A DNA stretch of 50,092 bases from the IMG/VR virus record IMGVR_UViG_3300008267_013330, positions 1 through 50,092 of that record. The stretch is one strand, 5' to 3'. The notes beneath the pieces were generated by a model that saw only the letters and a list, made by a program, of their open reading frames with translations, searched no databases and had not been told where the DNA came from. Position 1 is the first letter of the stretch. Each line of letters begins with the position of its first letter. A program made the translations under genes and the position numbers. Below are positions 6,935 to 46,875 of the stretch, piece by piece. Source of the stretch: a virus.

Positions 6935-7068
6935 AAAGAATATTGACGGGCACTTCGGAATCTTCAAGAATTAAATTTATTAAAACTGATAATAAATCAG
7001 ATTTTATAAAAAAAATAAAAAAAATCCTTAATTTAAGAAAAATAAAATATAGTAAATTAAAAAAATAA
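6931..7068 (+). CDS. Small basic protein
   Basis: A 45-residue frame coupled by ATGA to the membrane protein gene. The second half is almost only Lys, Ile and Leu. It ends 4 nt before the promoter of the RNA island, so it marks the end of the left gene block. Confidence 0.45.
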   Translation: MKRILTGTSESSRIKFIKTDNKSDFIKKIKKILNLRKIKYSKLKK

Positions 7069-7072
7069 TTAC

Positions 7073-7080
7073 TATATTTG
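7073..7080 (+). promoter_or_regulatory. Promoter of the RNA island (TATATTTG)
   Basis: TATATTTG fits the Bacteroidota -7 consensus and is followed within about 7 nt by the first base of a long RNA hairpin. No clear TTG is seen at the -33 distance. Confidence 0.55.
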
Positions 7081-7086
7081 TAAAAC

Positions 7087-7151
7087 AAAAGATAAGGGGT
7101 TACACAATGGTACTTGGAAGTATGTAACCTTAAAAAAAAACCTTATCTTTT
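7087..7151 (+). ncRNA. Nested-hairpin leader RNA
   Basis: AAAAGATAAGG (7087-7097) pairs perfectly with CCTTATCTTTT (7141-7151), 11 bp. Directly inside, GGTTAC (7098-7103) pairs with GTAACC (7124-7129), and the loop holds GTACT-TGGA-AGTAT. The element lies between a promoter and tRNA-Glu. It could be a processing signal, a small stable RNA, or an attenuator ending in the T-rich 3' arm. Confidence 0.55.
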
Positions 7152-7155
7152 ATTT

Positions 7156-7227
7156 GCTCCCATCGTCTATCGGTTAGGACATCAGGTTTTCATCCTGAAA
7201 AGCGGGGTTCGATTCCCCGTGGGAGTA
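7156..7227 (+). tRNA. tRNA-Glu (anticodon UUC)
   Basis: A complete cloverleaf of 72 nt. The acceptor GCTCCCA pairs with TGGGAGT (one G-T). The anticodon stem is TCAGG/CCTGA around loop TTTTCAT, and the T-arm is CGGGG-TTCGATT-CCCCG. The CCA end is not encoded. Confidence 0.93.
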
Positions 7228-7487
7228 CGGAAATTAGTTCTTTGAAATATTGAAAAACATTGTAGTTGTAAGAAACGGTAAACTCGTAAAGTGTATCAAC
7301 CTGTTAAATCAAGATAGTGAAACGAGAGTGTGATTTAACTACTAAACTACAGTAAAAATTGTGTTGTTCCCTTGAGAAAGGAATACCAGTTATGAATATA
7401 TTGAAGTATGAGGAATGATAAGGAGGACTTCTCTTAAACATTCATATACTGGTTATCACAGCACAGAGGACTTCTCATCCTCAAATT
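7228..7487 (+). ncRNA. Structured RNA, 5' part of the island
   Basis: This 260-nt stretch has no credible gene but clear RNA folds. TGTAGTT (7261-7267) pairs with AACTACA (7345-7351). GTTAAATCA (7303-7311) pairs with TGATTTAAC (7331-7339), and its loop holds ACGAG (7322-7326) that can pair with CTCGT (7283-7287), a pseudoknot. A second domain pairs ACCAGT/TATGAAT (7385-7397) with ATTCATA/ACTGGT (7440-7453). GAGGACTTCTC-like sequence occurs twice near 7423 and 7467. It begins right after a boxA-like site. Confidence 0.6.
7237..7249 (+). promoter_or_regulatory. boxA-like antitermination motif
   Basis: GTTCTTTGAAATA occurs here, again at 10864, and as GTTCTTTGATTTA at 17287, each time directly before a structured RNA. 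It resembles the NusB/S10 boxA of rRNA leaders. Confidence 0.5.
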
Positions 7488-7561
7488 GCACCCGTAGCTT
7501 AGCTGAATAGAGCAACTCACTTCTAATGAGTAGGTCCCAGGTTTGAATCCTGGCGGGTGTA
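7488..7561 (+). tRNA. tRNA-Arg (anticodon UCU)
   Basis: A complete 74-nt cloverleaf. The acceptor GCACCCG pairs with CGGGTGT, the anticodon stem ACTCA/TGAGT surrounds CTTCTAA, and the T-arm is CCAGG-TTTGAAT-CCTGG. It reads AGA, a codon heavily used in this AT-rich sequence. CCA is not encoded. Confidence 0.93.
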
Positions 7562-7778
7562 CTGGGAGTGCATACAGTAGAGTTCAGTTTGAGAGCCGAG
7601 TGTACCAAGCACTTAAAAGATGGGTACAAGGAATCAAATCGTTTATTCAGTTTAAGGCGAGAAAAACTGACGTTTGGGAGAGATGGTTGTCGGACAACCT
7701 ACACCCGTGATGTTAGTGGGCTTGATCACCCCTTTCACGTAAATCGTGACGAAACTTACCCAGGGAGTAGTCACACAT

Positions 7779-7870
7779 AGTCAGGTTGGATACAAGGTCG
7801 GTTCGAGTCCGATGGCAGACATGGATGTCAGGTAGCCCCTTGGAGAGAGGTTCGATTCCTCTCCTGACTA
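7779..7870 (+). other. tRNA-like element (possible tRNA-Ser CGA without a normal D-arm)
   Basis: AGTCAGG pairs with CCTGACT, followed by discriminator A. A perfect T-arm AGAGG-TTCGATT-CCTCT lies exactly where a tRNA would have it. An inner hairpin GTCGG-TTCGAGT-CCGAT would read CGA as an anticodon, and GACAT-GG-ATGTC could be a long variable arm. Only 11 nt separate the acceptor strand from that hairpin, too few for a D-arm. It may be a degenerate tRNA or a tRNA mimic inside the larger RNA. Confidence 0.4.
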
Positions 7871-8086
7871 CAAAAACACATAAACTTCAGTTCCCACACA
7901 GCGGTGAGGCGGGCTAAGCTAGATACAATTTCTCGGGGCTGGGAGTAGAAGGCTGAAGAATGTGTTTTAAATAGTCAGGTGGCGGATGGGTAGACGCAGA
8001 GGTGAGGGGTATAAAACAAAGGGCAGGGCACAAGTCCGTTTACGGAACTGAACATTGGGAGAGGTCGAGGAACTTCCATTACCCCG

Positions 8087-8098
8087 ATGACTTTTTTT
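8087..8098 (+). terminator. T-run ending the RNA island
   Basis: A run of seven T follows the closing strand TGACT of the last RNA helix, a plausible intrinsic stop for the island transcript. Confidence 0.45.
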
Positions 8099-8109
8099 GA
8101 AACTTTAAC

Positions 8110-8119
8110 ATATTTATAG
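8110..8119 (+). promoter_or_regulatory. ATATTTATAG motif upstream of ferritin
   Basis: ATATTTATAG lies 13 nt upstream of the ATG at 8133, a member of the recurrent ATATTTAT(T/A) start-proximal set. Confidence 0.4.
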
Positions 8120-8132
8120 ATAAAATAATGTT

Positions 8133-8750
8133 ATGGATAAAAATGTGAAAACAAGAACTAATTTTATTGTAGACGAACTACTTAAAAAAAGTAGGATTTT
8201 AGAGCAAGACGATGAACAACAAAACGAACCTGAAAAACAAGAAACAAAAACAAGTGGTGAACCTGAACTTTATAAATTAAGTCCTAAGGTAGTTGAAATA
8301 CTTACAAATAGAATTAAAGACGAGTATTACGCACACTATCTTTATAGAACAGCGGCAAATTGGTGTCAAGATATGAACTATAAAAAAGCGGCAGCTTTCT
8401 TTGAGGAAGATGCAAACAAAGAATTGGAACACGCACAATCAATTCAAAAGTATTTGGCAGATTTTAACATTGTTATTAAAATGCCACAATCCGAAACTTC
8501 TTTTGAATTTGATAGTCTATTAGATATTATTTATAAAGCTTATGATTTTGAGTTGGCTTTAATGAAAAGTTACAACAAAGACTCACAAGATGTTTTTCAA
8601 GAAGATTTAACCACGTTTGATTTCTTACAACAATTTAGAGAAATTCAAAAAGAGTCAGTGGTTGAGTTTAATGATTTCATCAATGGAGCTAATTTGGTTA
8701 ACAAGGGGGATAAATTCCAAATTCTTTATTTTGAACAAACTTATTTTTAA
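8133..8750 (+). CDS. Ferritin-like protein with an N-terminal extension
   Basis: The 205-residue protein has a ferritin four-helix domain from about residue 50. DEYYAHYLYRTAANWC is at 63-78 (Glu64), and FFEEDANKELEHAQ at 89-102 gives the Glu97/His100 pair. A Glu near 140 and FLQQFREIQKES at 164-175 with Gln172 follow. These are the ferroxidase-type positions of bacterial ferritins, so iron oxidation and storage is likely. Unlike typical ferritins it has about 50 extra N-terminal residues containing RILE-QDDE, which looks like the hydrophobic-x-Glu cargo peptide of other genes here. A hairpin terminator follows. Confidence 0.8.
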   Translation: MDKNVKTRTNFIVDELLKKSRILEQDDEQQNEPEKQETKTSGEPELYKLSPKVVEILTNRIKDEYYAHYLYRTAANWCQDMNYKKAAAFFEEDANKELEHAQSIQKYLADFNIVIKMPQSETSFEFDSLLDIIYKAYDFELALMKSYNKDSQDVFQEDLTTFDFLQQFREIQKESVVEFNDFINGANLVNKGDKFQILYFEQTYF

Positions 8751-12770: not shown

Positions 12771-15134
12771 TTATGCTAAGGTTATACTAATTGTACCACC
12801 ATTAGATATTGTTAATTTATATCTTGTACCATCAGGACTTTTCATTATAACACCCTCACCAACCTCAGTTAATTCTACTTTAGGCATATATACGGTGTCA
12901 TCTGTTGAACCAGTTATTCCTTGACCACCTAATACCACACTCCTTATACCAGTTACTGTTGAACTATATGAATGTATAAACGAACTATCACCACTCGCTA
13001 TTGATTGGTAACCACCTGCGTGAGAAGCGTACCCTGATGCTGTTGTTTGAAAACCTTCAGAATGGGATTGATAACCGGCAGCTACTGTGGCATAACCTTC
13101 AGCGTGAGAATAAGGTCCTAAAGCAGTTGTTGCAACACCTTCAGAATGTGAATATGTTCCTTCTGCTGTTGTACCGTTACCTTCAGCGTGAGAAACATCA
13201 CCAAAAGCTATTGAACCCTCACCTTCCGCGTGTGATCTACCACCAATAGCACTTGTTGATAAACCTTCAGCATGAGAAGTATAACCACTAGCCAAAGTGT
13301 TAACACCCTCAGAATGGGAACCATCACCAACCGCACTTGTATTACCACCTTCAGCGTGTGATTCTAAACCACTAGCTGATGTTTGGAAACCTTCAGCGTG
13401 TGAGTAATTACCAATAGCTAAAGTACCTTCACCTTCAGCATGTGACTCTAGACCACTAGCTATCGTACTAGCACCTTCAGCGTGTGAATAGTTTCCTGAA
13501 GATGTTGTTAAATAACCTTCAGCGTGAGAACTAACACCCGACGCGATTGTTAACCAACCTTCAGCGTGAGAACCATTTCCAAACGCAGTTGTTGAATTAC
13601 CTTCAGCGTGAGAAAAATAACCTGATGCTGTTGTAAAATTACCTTCAGTGTGGGAATAACTACCTGAAGCTGTTGTTTCTCTACCTTCAGCGTGTGAAGA
13701 TATACCTAAAGCTTTACCACCGCCAAAAGAAAACCCAAAGCCATTATTATATCCACCTTCAGCATGTGAACCAACACCTGAAGCAGTTGATTGAAAACCT
13801 TCAGCGTGGGAATAAGTACCTGATGCGGTTGTTTGACCACCTTCAGCGTGAGAATTGGTATTTGATGCTGTCGTTCCACCACCTTCAGCGTGAGAGAATT
13901 GACCTGAAGCTACAGTTAGATTACCTTCAGCGTGAGAAGCGTCACCTGATGCGGTTGTTGCTTCACCTTCAGCATGGGAAGATATACCTAAAGCTTTACC
14001 ACCTTCAATAGTTGTCCCGACTCCATCACTATAACCGCCTTCAGCGTGAGAACCAATTCCTTGTGCCGTAGTTTCAAAACCTTCAGCGTGGGAATAATTA
14101 CCTGAAGCTGTTGTGTTAGCACCCTCAGAATGTGAACCAAGACCTGAAGATGTTGTGTTACCACCTTCAGCGTGAGAAAACTGACCACTAGCTATACTAA
14201 AATTACCCTCAGCATGGGAACCGAAATCACCTAATGCCGTTGTCCAAATACCTTCAGCATGGGAAGATATACCTAAAGCTTTACCGCCATCAAAAGTTGT
14301 CCCAACTCCATCATTATAACCACCTTCAGCGTGAGAACCCACACCTGAAGCAGTTGATTGAAAACCTTCAGCGTGAGAAGCGTATCCTGATGCGGTTGTT
14401 AATCTACCTTCAGCGTGAGAACCCGTACTCGATGCTGTTGTATTACCACCTTCAGCGTGTGACATTTGTCCCGAAGCCACAGTTTGAGAACCTTCGGCGT
14501 GAGAACCAAAATCACCTGACGCTATTGTTCTATCACCTTCAGCGTGAGAAGATATACCTAAAGCTTTACCGCCATCCGCAATTACAATACCATCATTATA
14601 ACCACCTTCAGCGTGAGAACCCACACCTGACGCAGTTGAATTAAAACCTTCAGCGTGAGAAAAATATCCTGATGCGGTTGTTTGAAAACCTTCTTGTAAA
14701 CTATATGTAATATTATTAAAAGTAAAACTAGGACTAGCACCAAAAGATCCACCATCATTGAATTGAATCTCTGTGTTATTTCCTGCTGGTGTTCCACCAC
14801 CTCCACCACCTGTGGCTTCAATTTGTAATGCTGTACCCGCTAAATTTTGTGTTATTATTATCCCAGAACCAGCATTTAAACCCTTTGTTGATAAAGTTGG
14901 CCCTGTTCCGTCACTAACTAAAGAATAACTACCTCCGGCAGATGTTAAAGTTGTTGTACCACCCCCACCAGCTTGCCAAGTAGTATTACCATTAGCATCA
15001 GAAGTTAAGACATAACCATTTGTCGCTCCGTTTGTAATTTGGAGGTTGTCCACAACAAATTTAGTTGAACCACTCACAGTTATTGGTCCGTTTGTTGTAT
15101 ATGGTGTAATGTAATTTACGTTAATTTGACTCAT
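12771..15134 (-). CDS. Repetitive tail fibre or adhesin with 37 SHAEG repeats (YadA-head-like)
   Basis: The 787-residue protein starts with a phage-type segment (YITPYTTNGPITVSGS, then NGYVLTSDANGN). The bulk is about 37 units of 14-24 residues with core SH(A/S)EG..TTASG, the left-handed roll repeat of trimeric YadA/Hep_Hag heads. A larger unit containing GGYNDG...GGKALGISSHAEG recurs four times. The end (VYMPKVELTEVGEGVIMKSPDGTRY) is typical of phage fibres; no S74 chaperone domain is seen. It likely forms a trimeric receptor-binding fibre. It lies on the minus strand with a heptamer-repeat leader. Confidence 0.8.
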   Translation of the reverse strand: MSQINVNYITPYTTNGPITVSGSTKFVVDNLQITNGATNGYVLTSDANGNTTWQAGGGGTTTLTSAGGSYSLVSDGTGPTLSTKGLNAGSGIIITQNLAGTALQIEATGGGGGGTPAGNNTEIQFNDGGSFGASPSFTFNNITYSLQEGFQTTASGYFSHAEGFNSTASGVGSHAEGGYNDGIVIADGGKALGISSHAEGDRTIASGDFGSHAEGSQTVASGQMSHAEGGNTTASSTGSHAEGRLTTASGYASHAEGFQSTASGVGSHAEGGYNDGVGTTFDGGKALGISSHAEGIWTTALGDFGSHAEGNFSIASGQFSHAEGGNTTSSGLGSHSEGANTTASGNYSHAEGFETTAQGIGSHAEGGYSDGVGTTIEGGKALGISSHAEGEATTASGDASHAEGNLTVASGQFSHAEGGGTTASNTNSHAEGGQTTASGTYSHAEGFQSTASGVGSHAEGGYNNGFGFSFGGGKALGISSHAEGRETTASGSYSHTEGNFTTASGYFSHAEGNSTTAFGNGSHAEGWLTIASGVSSHAEGYLTTSSGNYSHAEGASTIASGLESHAEGEGTLAIGNYSHAEGFQTSASGLESHAEGGNTSAVGDGSHSEGVNTLASGYTSHAEGLSTSAIGGRSHAEGEGSIAFGDVSHAEGNGTTAEGTYSHSEGVATTALGPYSHAEGYATVAAGYQSHSEGFQTTASGYASHAGGYQSIASGDSSFIHSYSSTVTGIRSVVLGGQGITGSTDDTVYMPKVELTEVGEGVIMKSPDGTRYKLTISNGGTISITLA
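13010..14690. repeat. Imperfect tandem repeats encoding SHAEG units
   Basis: On the plus strand ACCTTCAGCGTGAGAA and close variants recur about every 42-48 nt, with longer spacers every fourth to eighth unit. It encodes the fibre's repeat region. Such arrays can change copy number by recombination. Confidence 0.9.
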
Positions 15135-17300: not shown

Positions 17301-17700
17301 GGGGGTGTTTTTGGATTTGACTTGTCGTGATTGTGACGAGTGTAAGCATGTCGTGAAATGATGCTATCACGTTAATACACGTATTAAAATTTTAAATGGC
17401 GACGTATTCGCAAACGCAACTGTAGGTCACTTTGTGACTGAAGGAGCGACAGTAGCTGCCTAATCAGATTAGGTGTTACTATGGGGTCGGTGGACATATA
17501 ACCTAGCAACAGAAGTCTTTACAAAGGTGTGGTTTCTACCCGAAAAGGAACAAGTGGAGGATTAGTTCTCAGTAAACCGAACCACTATAAAATAAGGGAA
17601 TTGTGAAATTTCGGATTGTTAGCTTAAACAATGACCTAAACATGTAGAAGACCGTTAAAATACGGTAAGGACAGCGGTTCGAGCCCGCTCACCTCCACCA
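17301..17700 (+). ncRNA. ssrA: tmRNA (ssrA)
   Basis: The 5' end GGGGGTGTTTTTGGATTTGAC and the 3' end GGTTCGAGCCCGCTCACCTCCACCA-type arm form the alanyl tRNA-like domain. GGGGGTG pairs with CACCTCC including the G-U identity pair, and CCA is encoded. The tag frame starts at GGC 17398 after TTTTAAAT and ends at TAA 17461 inside hairpin CCTAAT/ATTAGG. It encodes GDVFANATVGH-FVTEGATVAA, 21 residues ending in a degron-like VAA. tmRNA rescues stalled ribosomes and marks the product for proteolysis. Confidence 0.95.
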
Positions 17701-38159: not shown

Positions 38160-38233
38160 GCGTAAGTAGTTTAGTGGTCAAAACACTTACCAATCCTGGT
38201 AGGAGACAAAAGTTCGAATCTTATTCTTACGCT
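38160..38233 (+). tRNA. Degenerate tRNA-like element, possibly tRNA-Gly (UCC)
   Basis: The acceptor GCGTAAG pairs perfectly with CTTACGC, and a D-arm GTTT-AGTGGTCA-AAAC and a T-loop TTCGAAT are present. The anticodon arm is abnormal: TTACC/GGTAG encloses only AATCCT, and TACCA/TGGTA can close a tetraloop. U33 is missing. The T-stem has a mismatch. It may be a decayed tRNA-Gly or a non-translational tRNA mimic. Confidence 0.5.
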
Positions 38234-44442: not shown

Positions 44443-45720
44443 ATGAAATATTTTTTAACTTTACTATTGGTTATTACATCATTTATTGGTTTTAGTCAAC
44501 CAATAAATGACAATTGTTCTAATGCTACTGTAATTACACTACCTAATCCTGTGGCATGTCCAAACGGAATTGGGTCAACGGTTAATGTTAGTGGTACCAA
44601 TATAGGTGCAACCGCACCAACCCCTTACACATATCTTTTGGGATGTTCAACGGGTGGAAATCAACCAGCACCAGCACTTGATGTGTGGTATAGATTTGTA
44701 GCCACAGGAACAAGAGTTACTATCAACATAACAGGGGGTTCACCTGCATTACCAAGTCCCGCAATTTCTCTGTGGAATGGTACTAACTGTAATAACTTAT
44801 CAGGGACAGGGTGTGATAATAACGGAACAACGGCGGGAGCAAATTCAGCAACTTTTGAACCATTAGCTATAGGTCAAACATACTATATACAAATTAGTGG
44901 TATGAACTCCACAACCACAGGTAATTTTAACATGTCTATAAACGCTTCAAATGATTGTGCTGATTGTAATACCTCATCTAATTTAACAGTCACACCACCA
45001 CCAACAAACGGAGCATATTTACCAGGAACTCAAGTAACATTTTGTTATACAATTACAAATTATAATCAAGTAAACGCCAATTGGATACACGGTATTATAC
45101 CCACATTTGGTAATGGTTGGAATTTAACGACATTACAATCTAACGGAACGCCACCAATACCTTCAGGAGGTTATGGTTGGTATTGGGCTAATGGCCCTTT
45201 AGGTCAAGGATGGTGGGTAGATGTTGATCCAGTTGGGCCAACGGGTCCTGATGGTATTTTTAATAATAATTATGGTTATTCACCTGTTAATGGTACAGGT
45301 ACTTGGACTTGGTGCTGGAGAATAACAACAAAGTCAAATTGTTCTTTAGGTACTAATCTTAGTTTATCAATTAACACAACCTCTGATGGTGAGACAGGTA
45401 GTTGGACATCTCCAGCTTGTTTAGATGATCCTGTTTACCAATTTTCAGCTTTACTTAATTGTTGCACAACAAATGCAACATCTGTTAACCCAACTTGTTT
45501 TGGTTATTCTAATGGTACTACGACTGCCAACCCTAGTGGCGTTTCACCTTATCAATATACTTGGAGTACCTCCCCCGTTCAAACAACGCAAACCGCAACT
45601 AATTTACCTGCAGGCACTTATACAGTTACAGTGACGGATGCCTCAGGTTGTGTTTCTAACGCCACAGTAACATTAACAAATCCCCCTCAAATAGTAGTGG
45701 GGCCAATAAACCATAATTAA
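44443..45720 (+). CDS. Secreted adhesin-like protein with SprB repeat
   Basis: The 425-residue protein has a signal peptide (about 1-19, FSQ) followed by PINDNCSNATVITLP, a domain opening typical of Bacteroidota surface proteins, then a beta-rich PPC-like domain with DVWYRFVATG. The C-terminal 75 residues are an SprB repeat (NPTCFGYSNGTTTANPSG..PYQYTWST..NLPAGTYTVTVTDASGC). It ends GPINHN, close to the SPIQHN end of the next product. SprB-type proteins are exported by T9SS and act in gliding adhesion. Rich in Thr, Asn, Gly and Cys. Confidence 0.8.
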   Translation: MKYFLTLLLVITSFIGFSQPINDNCSNATVITLPNPVACPNGIGSTVNVSGTNIGATAPTPYTYLLGCSTGGNQPAPALDVWYRFVATGTRVTINITGGSPALPSPAISLWNGTNCNNLSGTGCDNNGTTAGANSATFEPLAIGQTYYIQISGMNSTTTGNFNMSINASNDCADCNTSSNLTVTPPPTNGAYLPGTQVTFCYTITNYNQVNANWIHGIIPTFGNGWNLTTLQSNGTPPIPSGGYGWYWANGPLGQGWWVDVDPVGPTGPDGIFNNNYGYSPVNGTGTWTWCWRITTKSNCSLGTNLSLSINTTSDGETGSWTSPACLDDPVYQFSALLNCCTTNATSVNPTCFGYSNGTTTANPSGVSPYQYTWSTSPVQTTQTATNLPAGTYTVTVTDASGCVSNATVTLTNPPQIVVGPINHN

Positions 45721-45726
45721 ACTATT

Positions 45727-46308
45727 ATGAAAAAATTATTATTTATTTTAATGATGATGATTTCGGGGATTTCATTATCACAGTTATCAACAACAAATCC
45801 AGATACGGTTTGTTATCAATCAACAGCACTGTCTACGTATACTGTACCATCTGTTGGTTCGGGAACTTATACTTGGACTGTTACATCACCCGGTGTTATT
45901 ACCGCAGGTCAAGGAACAAACTCAATTTCTGTAAACTGGTCAGCAGCATCACCTGGATTAATCACAAATGGTGTATCTGTAACCTATTCTTCACCAGCAC
46001 CAGCAAACTGTCCGGCAGCACCTGTAAATTTAAATGTATTAATTTATCAAGTTATCCCAACAATACAAGCATTAGGGCCATTTTGTGAATCTGACCCATG
46101 TGTTACATTAGTTGGTTCACCCGCAGGTGGAACATGGTCAGGTACTGGTGTTTCAGGAAACCAATTTTGCCCTGATAACGTAGCGAATGGTACAAACGCA
46201 ACATCAACCGTAACATATACTGTTGGGTCTGCTGGATGTACGTTTTCAACTTCTGTTGTTGTCCCTGTTTATGGTACACCAACATTATCACCTATCCAAC
46301 ATAACTAA
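45727..46308 (+). CDS. Secreted PKD/Ig-like protein
   Basis: The 193-residue protein has a signal peptide (about 1-18, SLS). Two beta-sandwich segments follow: TYTWTVTSPGVITAGQGTNSISVNW (PKD-like) and a C-rich FCESDPCVTLVGSPAGGTWSGTGVSG (typical of Bacteroidota adhesin domains). It ends SPIQHN. It starts 6 nt after the SprB-repeat gene and stops at the next start. It seems to be a central segment of a multi-domain adhesin that here is a separate protein. Confidence 0.7.
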   Translation: MKKLLFILMMMISGISLSQLSTTNPDTVCYQSTALSTYTVPSVGSGTYTWTVTSPGVITAGQGTNSISVNWSAASPGLITNGVSVTYSSPAPANCPAAPVNLNVLIYQVIPTIQALGPFCESDPCVTLVGSPAGGTWSGTGVSGNQFCPDNVANGTNATSTVTYTVGSAGCTFSTSVVVPVYGTPTLSPIQHN

Positions 46309-46875
46309 ATGAGATTAATTATTTTCATATTATTTTTGTTTTTGTCCTTAGAAACTTCGGCACAACAGTCAATAGAACTTTGTGCCGGAGAGTCTAAAAC
46401 TGTTACTTATTTCTCCACATCTACAAGTGAAGGTACAAATACTTGGTATGTTAATAATTCACCATATATTACAAACGAATTAACATATACGTTTAGTAAT
46501 GCTGGAACATATAGTATAGTGGTTAGAAAAGAAAATGGTCCTTGTTATGTTGAAGAAAGTTTACAAGTAATTGTAACTGACTGCCCTGGTGTTATTTATT
46601 GGGTTCCTAATTGTTTTACACCCGACGATAACGAGGCAAATCAAATATATGGACCTGTAATGACAGAAGGGTATGATATAAATGGTTTTGAGTTTTTAGT
46701 TTTTAATAGATGGGGTAATGTTGTATGGGAGTCTCAAGATCCTAACGGAAGGTGGGACGGAACATACAACGGAAAAAAATGTCCTGACGGGGTTTATATT
46801 TGGAAATTACGATTTAATGTTTTTGATGACGACAGTAAAATTTCAGATCACGGACATTTAACTATTATTAGATAA
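46309..46875 (+). CDS. Secreted protein with T9SS type B sorting domain
   Basis: The 188-residue protein has a signal peptide (about 1-18, ETSAQ), one PKD-like domain (TNTWYVNNSP..NAGTYSIVVRKENG) and a complete CHU_C/T9SS type B domain. That domain has WVPNCFTPDDNEANQIYGPV, FLVFNRWGNVVWES, WDGTYNGKKCPDGVYIW and GHLTIIR. This C-terminus directs export across the outer membrane by the host's type IX machinery. It is last of the trio and the only one with a visible sorting signal. Confidence 0.85.
   Translation: MRLIIFILFLFLSLETSAQQSIELCAGESKTVTYFSTSTSEGTNTWYVNNSPYITNELTYTFSNAGTYSIVVRKENGPCYVEESLQVIVTDCPGVIYWVPNCFTPDDNEANQIYGPVMTEGYDINGFEFLVFNRWGNVVWESQDPNGRWDGTYNGKKCPDGVYIWKLRFNVFDDDSKISDHGHLTIIR

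What the first reader, a model, noticed from the sequence alone, without database searches (positions are those of the whole stretch)
7237..8099. Large ornate non-coding RNA within a phage tRNA island
Apart from tRNA-Arg, 7250-8099 lacks a credible gene. It differs in composition from the coding DNA and is full of long perfect helices: TGTAGTT/AACTACA; GTTAAATCA/TGATTTAAC with a loop pseudoknot; ACCAGT..ACTGGT; TCAGTTT/AAACTGA; AAAACACAT..ATGTGTTTT; GGGGTA/TACCCC. It begins after a boxA-like site and ends in a T run. GOLLD and ROOL RNAs are known large phage RNAs next to or around tRNAs. This may be a member or a new class of such RNAs.
Basis: partly seen in the sequence, partly recalled or inferred. 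Interest (0 to 1): 0.85.

Follow-up and report, generated by a model that had tools for sequence, protein, structure and literature searches.

The report
Phage tRNA-punctuated array of small RNAs
The stretch does not encode one giant RNA but a string of several separate, previously uncatalogued structured RNAs, set between tRNA genes and a tRNA look-alike in a large uncultivated virus of bacteria; the same parts recur, reshuffled, in more than a hundred related virus fragments.

Summary
In detail: 7237-8099 is non-coding, GC-rich (35-51% against about 27%) and structured. The region has no match to GOLLD, ROOL or any Rfam family except tRNA, and it is not one molecule. Homologues show separate modules (B, C, tRNA-Arg, D, a tRNA-like element, E, F) that occur independently and at different spacings in tRNA islands of large viruses, always on one strand. 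B, D and E covary significantly against a phylogeny-aware null; B has a covarying pseudoknot. D starts within 3 nt of an upstream tRNA or tRNA-like end in 28/32 sequences and ends within 3 nt of the next in 29/32. B sits at the 5' end, after a Bacteroidota-type promoter (42/47) and a boxA-like site (36/47). A family of 189 tRNA-like elements keeps one acceptor stem and T-arm around variable inserts. Best explanation: an untranslated operon whose leader (boxA plus B) keeps polymerase going and whose tRNAs and tRNA mimics let RNase P/Z cut out the modules. Anatomy is well supported; mechanism is inferred. GOLLD lies 5-14 kb downstream in all five large records with a clear B match, but is absent from the window.

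The parts
7073..7080 (+). putative Bacteroidota-type -7 promoter element TANNTTTG (TATATTTG)
   Evidence: sequence; same motif within 200 nt upstream of B in 42 of 47 unique homologues against 0.156 expected per window
7089..7152 (+). transcript leader hairpin (GATAAGG..CCTTATC)
   Evidence: z -3.34 against shuffles; analogous leader hairpins in relatives (module N01)
7156..7228 (+). tRNA-Glu(TTC)
   Evidence: ARAGORN; Rfam 58.9 bits
7238..7245 (+). boxA-like site TTCTTTGA, 15 nt before B
   Evidence: sequence; 36 of 47 B homologues have TTC[ATG]TTGA within 200 nt upstream, 23 of them 11-17 nt upstream, background 0.03
7260..7351 (+). module B: P1 7261-7267/7345-7351, P2 7303-7311/7331-7339, pseudoknots 7283-7287/7322-7326 and 7294-7296/7314-7316
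   Evidence: 103 loci; covariation
7354..7487 (+). module C: stem 7360-7366/7459-7465 with conserved TTCCCTTGAGAAAGGAA, variable insert, and hairpin 7466-7482
   Evidence: motif in at least 120 viral contig stretches, in two contexts; followed directly by a tRNA or tRNA-like element in most aligned type-1 cases
7488..7562 (+). tRNA-Arg(TCT)
7563..7777 (+). module D, fills the gap between two tRNA or tRNA-like genes
   Evidence: 52 loci; 28/32 unique abut the upstream and 29/32 the downstream tRNA/tRNA-like gene within 3 nt; two covarying pairs
7778..7872 (+). tRNA-like element T1: acceptor 7779-7785/7863-7869, T-arm 7846-7862, no normal anticodon arm
   Evidence: ARAGORN gives tRNA-???; homologues 85-92% identical in L077, L100 and L096/L116; family of 189
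7873..7971 (+). module E: P1 7873-7881/7960-7968, P2, pseudoknotted core
   Evidence: 128 loci; 8 of 19 pairs significantly covarying
7973..7998 (+). 5' half of a second tRNA-like element (AGTCAGGTGGCGGATGGGTAGACGCA), no T-arm follows
   Evidence: matches the tRNA-like scaffold
8005..8092 (+). module F with closing stem GGGGTA/TACCCC, followed by T run 8092-8098 (terminator-like)
   Evidence: 92% over 75 nt with L024; two more contigs share a 17-mer

Best explanation
The region is a polycistronic, untranslated operon of a large virus that probably infects Bacteroidota. A promoter at about 7080 makes a transcript carrying tRNA-Glu, then B, C, tRNA-Arg, D, a tRNA-like element, E and F, ending at the T run at 8098. 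Shown: the parts exist, B, D and E are structured RNAs, they recur as separate units on one strand, and D and many E copies abut tRNA or tRNA-like genes. Inferred: (1) boxA plus B act as a 5' antitermination element (like a nut site or put RNA) that lets polymerase cross long, hairpin-rich, untranslated DNA; (2) the tRNAs and tRNA-like elements are punctuation: RNase P cuts at their 5' ends and RNase Z or an equivalent at their 3' ends, releasing D, E and the B-C leader as separate small RNAs; (3) the released RNAs act in trans during infection.
For: Same strand in 24/24, 31/31 and 16/16 module pairs, and B upstream of D in 24/24. D boundaries within 3 nt of tRNA/tRNA-like genes in 28/32 and 29/32; B after a promoter motif in 42/47 and a boxA-like site in 36/47, and followed 6-14 nt later by a tRNA/tRNA-like gene in 26/47. 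Covariation in B, D, E. Independent distribution. tRNA-like elements with constant acceptor and T-arm and a variable anticodon region.
Against: No transcript, processing or antitermination data. That such boxA-like sites work in Bacteroidota rests on general knowledge of rRNA leaders and was not tested here. E ends in a U-rich arm and could itself be a terminator. In the window tRNA-Glu lies between promoter and B, unlike most relatives. Short spacers between phage tRNAs are common, so abutment may partly reflect compactness. The tRNA-like elements were found with a pattern that requires the T-arm and acceptor, so that conservation is partly built in.
Confidence: 0.6

Rival explanations
1. One large ornate RNA (a GOLLD/ROOL-like cage) that carries a tRNA in a linker and spans 7250-8099.
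For: GOLLD can hold tRNAs in its linker (PMC12286853); GOLLD occurs in the same virus group; single strand and B always before D.
Against: No Rfam hit to GOLLD or ROOL; modules occur without each other in records above 100 kb; order and spacing vary; D fits between two complete tRNAs.
Confidence: 0.06
2. The tRNA-like elements and modules are decoys: tRNA mimics that occupy host tRNA-cutting defence nucleases or other tRNA-binding enzymes, with variable inserts driven by an arms race.
For: 189 unique tRNA-like elements with one conserved acceptor/T-arm scaffold, discriminator A in 167, and highly variable inserts; several per genome.
Against: The non-tRNA modules B, C, D, E are strongly conserved rather than variable; no defence system was tested.
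Confidence: 0.15
3. B and C are cis-acting leader elements for maturation or stability of the tRNA directly behind them, with no antitermination role, and D and E are structural spacers.
For: B is followed by tRNA/tRNA-like genes at 6-14 nt in 26/47; C by tRNA or tRNA-like genes in the aligned type-1 cases.
Against: Tight link of B to promoter and boxA-like site; plain spacers would not need covarying pseudoknots.
Confidence: 0.15
4. Degenerate tRNA genes and recombination debris without function.
For: The half tRNA-like element at 7973-7998 lacks its 3' half.
Against: Covariation and near-invariant cores across about 100 loci.
Confidence: 0.04

Closest known systems
GOLLD RNA (RF02032)
   Same: large-phage RNA of tRNA islands, can enclose tRNAs; occurs in the same virus group on the same strand 5-14 kb downstream of B
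   Different: no sequence or model match to the region; the region is modular, not one RNA; GOLLD not found in the window
freshwater-1 RNA (RF02979)
   Same: a small candidate structured RNA that turns out to be another unit of the same islands (L055 71.8 bits, L142 70.3 bits, just below the 72-bit cut-off)
   Different: different sequence and structure; not found in the window
ROOL RNA
   Same: phage RNA near tRNA islands (PMC12286853)
   Different: no match at E<=10
nut sites / HK022 put RNA (antitermination; own knowledge)
   Same: boxA-like site and structured RNA near the start of a transcript
   Different: B is a ~90-nt double pseudoknot with no known sequence relation to them; function untested
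tRNA and tmRNA
   Same: acceptor stem, T-arm and often a Leu-like D-arm in the tRNA-like elements
   Different: anticodon and variable arms replaced by inserts; no tmRNA call in the region
T4 stable RNAs in its tRNA cluster (own knowledge, not checked)
   Same: untranslated RNAs of unknown function inside a phage tRNA operon
   Different: not compared by sequence here

Membership tests
GOLLD (RF02032) | match of the conserved 416-position region at or above 150 bits | tested here: not met
   no match in the window at gathering nor in 7000-8200 at E<=10
GOLLD (RF02032) | a single RNA of ~800 nt conserved as a unit | tested here: not met
   modules occur independently
ROOL | match to the Rfam model | tested here: not met
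tRNA (for T1) | acceptor stem and T-arm | tested here: met
   7779-7785/7863-7869 and 7846-7862
tRNA (for T1) | 5-bp anticodon stem with 7-nt loop giving a clear anticodon | tested here: not met
   ARAGORN tRNA-??? with a 4-base anticodon; no RF00005 hit at gathering
tmRNA (for T1) | match to RF00023 at 47 bits | tested here: not met
   11 bits
Group I intron | match to RF00028 | tested here: not met
   L024 does carry one elsewhere
freshwater-1 (RF02979) | match to the model | tested here: not met
   no match in the window or region
nut/put-type antitermination element (for B) | boxA-like site before a structured RNA at the transcript start | tested here: met
   (motif level only)
nut/put-type antitermination element (for B) | suppresses downstream terminators | not testable with these tools
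   needs a reporter assay

The most novel reading that the evidence does not exclude
Large Bacteroidota viruses carry a natural tRNA-scaffold system: a constant tRNA acceptor/T-arm/D-arm frame into which many different RNAs are set in place of the anticodon arm, strung with conserved structured RNAs behind a pseudoknotted RNA antiterminator (B) and cut apart by tRNA-processing enzymes; GOLLD further along the same strand may act with them.
Probability: 0.25. Interest if true: 0.88.

Novelty: new variant of a known kind. Interest (0 to 1): 0.7.

Why it matters
At least four RNA families (B, C, D, E) and one family of tRNA-like elements, each present in about fifty to more than a hundred virus fragments, are absent from Rfam 15. 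They show that the non-coding part of phage tRNA islands is built from reusable modules, give GOLLD and freshwater-1 a common genomic setting, and make two questions testable: how phages transcribe long untranslated operons, and whether tRNA mimics serve as processing marks or decoys.

Tried and rejected
GOLLD/ROOL membership. Thermodynamic stability as evidence: z-scores weak. Protein-coding reading: short ORFs only, and indels that break frame in the E and D alignments. Cultured phages by DNA similarity: no match for B/C, D or E/F; the tRNA-like scaffold matches only pieces of tRNAs, though Tenacibaculum phage pT24 has a similar-looking array without B, D or E. Cellular genomes: the strict B pattern gave only two hits, in an archaeon and a Bacillota, not followed up and taken as chance. 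Literature searches for tRNA-like phage RNAs, freshwater-1 and T4 stable RNAs found nothing usable in the held library; the paper I believe described freshwater-1 is not held. A possible C pseudoknot TGAGAA/TTCTCA could not be tested because the search pattern fixed one side.

Full report
What was claimed. The window is an IMG/VR virus record of 50,092 bases with linear ends. One of its genes encodes a CHU_C type IX secretion signal and TANNTTTG promoter-like motifs are present, so the host is probably in Bacteroidota (inference).

Check of the observation. tRNA-Glu (7156-7228) and tRNA-Arg (7488-7562) are sound; a third call at 7779-7871 has no clear anticodon. Between and after them there is no ORF above 70 aa, and GC rises to 0.35-0.51 in DNA otherwise near 0.27. 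Folding of the single sequence is not better than shuffles, so the claim needed homologues.

Homologues. The flanking ferritin-like protein and exact-pattern scans brought in viral loci. Local alignment broke the region into units that match separately and in other surroundings. In 358 sequences (357 loci and the window), B is found in 103, D in 52 and E in 128. Some loci come from the same or near-identical contigs.

Not one molecule. In 32 records above 100 kb, a clear B match occurs in five, E in 17 and D in four, in different combinations. Pairs of modules lie on the same strand in all cases (24 B-D, 31 B-E, 16 D-E), but gaps run from 93 to 4452 nt and E may be before or after B and D. B is always before D. 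These records were chosen because they held at least one module, so the rates are not population frequencies.

Structure. With an R-scape-like test written here (G-test with average-product correction; null made by re-placing each column's parsimony changes at random on a FastTree tree), B (62 sequences) has three significant pairs in P2 and one pseudoknot pair, E (84) has eight of 19 predicted pairs, and D (32) two pairs in two helices; a few non-pairing column pairs also pass, mostly neighbours of true pairs or alignment shifts. For B with two pseudoknots 93.7% of cells pair against 86.1% in shuffles and at most 49.8% when slid; the covariation score is 0.275 against 0.141. For E the figures are 92.2%, 81.8% and 47.0%, and 0.327 against 0.138. 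Exact-pattern retrieval fixed parts of B and E, so invariance there says nothing; the B pseudoknot pair 37-59 is informative because the pattern left base 59 as A or G and its partner at 37 free, and all 30 sequences pair.

Position. D starts within 3 nt of an upstream tRNA or tRNA-like end in 28 of 32 unique sequences and ends within 3 nt of the next in 29. E lies within 15 nt of one upstream in 32 of 82 and downstream in 39 of 82. B never abuts an upstream tRNA, has TANNTTTG within 200 nt upstream in 42 of 47 (background 0.156 per window) and TTC[ATG]TTGA in 36 of 47 (background 0.030), and is followed by a tRNA or tRNA-like gene at 6-14 nt in 26 of 47. In some relatives B begins about 10 nt after the promoter element, so it can be the transcript's 5' end.

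tRNA-like elements. A search for a T-arm followed by CCTGA[CT][TC], with a matching 5' strand, gave 189 unique elements in 103 loci, 54-199 nt long. Half of them carry the Leu-type D-arm start TGGCGG; the anticodon and variable arms are replaced by diverse inserts. ARAGORN of 189, 17 of them without an amino acid. The discriminator base is A in 167. The acceptor and T-arm were required by the search, so only the inserts and D-arms are independent observations. T1 in the window is a member with an unusual interior, and 7973-7998 is a 5' half without a 3' half.

Module C. Its hairpin with TTCCCTTGAGAAAGGAA recurs in at least 120 stretches in two contexts: before tRNAs and tRNA-like elements (68 sequences by a loose rule), and inside another larger conserved RNA, in some loci next to tmRNA genes (51 sequences).

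Relation to GOLLD. Real GOLLD RNAs (262-323 bits) occur in ten of the 32 records, including all five with a clear B match, on B's strand 5-14 kb downstream. Of two further records with a diverged B (76-77% identity), one has GOLLD (G007, locus L049) and one lacks it (G004, locus L097). The viruses are related, so this is association, not proof of joint function. The window has no GOLLD within its 50 kb.

Mechanism. The arrangement fits an untranslated operon with a boxA-B leader and tRNA-type punctuation. That boxA-like sites act in antitermination in this phylum is from general knowledge; cutting by RNase P and RNase Z at acceptor/T-arm structures is established for tRNAs, but was not tested for these elements. 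I hold the anatomy at about 0.9 and the two mechanistic steps at about 0.4-0.5 each.

Novelty. The modules are not in Rfam 15 and not in the held cultured phages. Structured RNAs in phage tRNA islands are a known kind, and freshwater-1 proves to be one unit of the same islands, so I file this as a new variant of a known kind.

Noticed in passing
L055:2193-2606 (-) and ten large records: True GOLLD RNAs lie 5-14 kb downstream of module B on the same strand in all five large records with a clear B match.
   Followed up: partly
L055:10852-10913 (-), L142:6124-6185: freshwater-1 RNA (RF02979) is one of the units of these islands, scoring just under its cut-off.
   Followed up: no
L188, L180, L155, L171, L202 around the C motif: A larger uncharacterised RNA starting after a TACCTTTG promoter-like site and ending near GAGGGTGCTAAA contains the C hairpin; it lies just upstream of tmRNA in L171 and L202.
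   Followed up: partly
L005:10863-11060, L006:14427-14633: Another conserved ~200-nt non-coding module (A), next to a tRNA-like element; not seen in the window.
   Followed up: no
L024:7609-8193 (-): A group I intron match abuts a low-scoring tmRNA match.
   Followed up: no
window 38160-38232: Weak tRNA match (35.2 bits) with an odd anticodon loop, not called by ARAGORN; perhaps another tRNA-like element.
   Followed up: no
window 17301-17700: Virus-borne tmRNA with tag ANATVGHFVTEGATVAA.
   Followed up: no
window 44443-46875: Three secreted-looking proteins, one with a PKD-like domain and one with a CHU_C type IX secretion signal, in a virus record.
   Followed up: no
window 12771-15134 (-): 787-aa protein made of SHAEG-type repeats, matching a family of unknown function, phrog_25468.
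   Followed up: no
L361:5278-6235 (Tenacibaculum phage pT24): Cultured phage with a tRNA-Sup, two undetermined tRNAs and long non-coding spacers; a possible laboratory model, although B, D, E (region) and GOLLD (whole record) were not found.
   Followed up: partly
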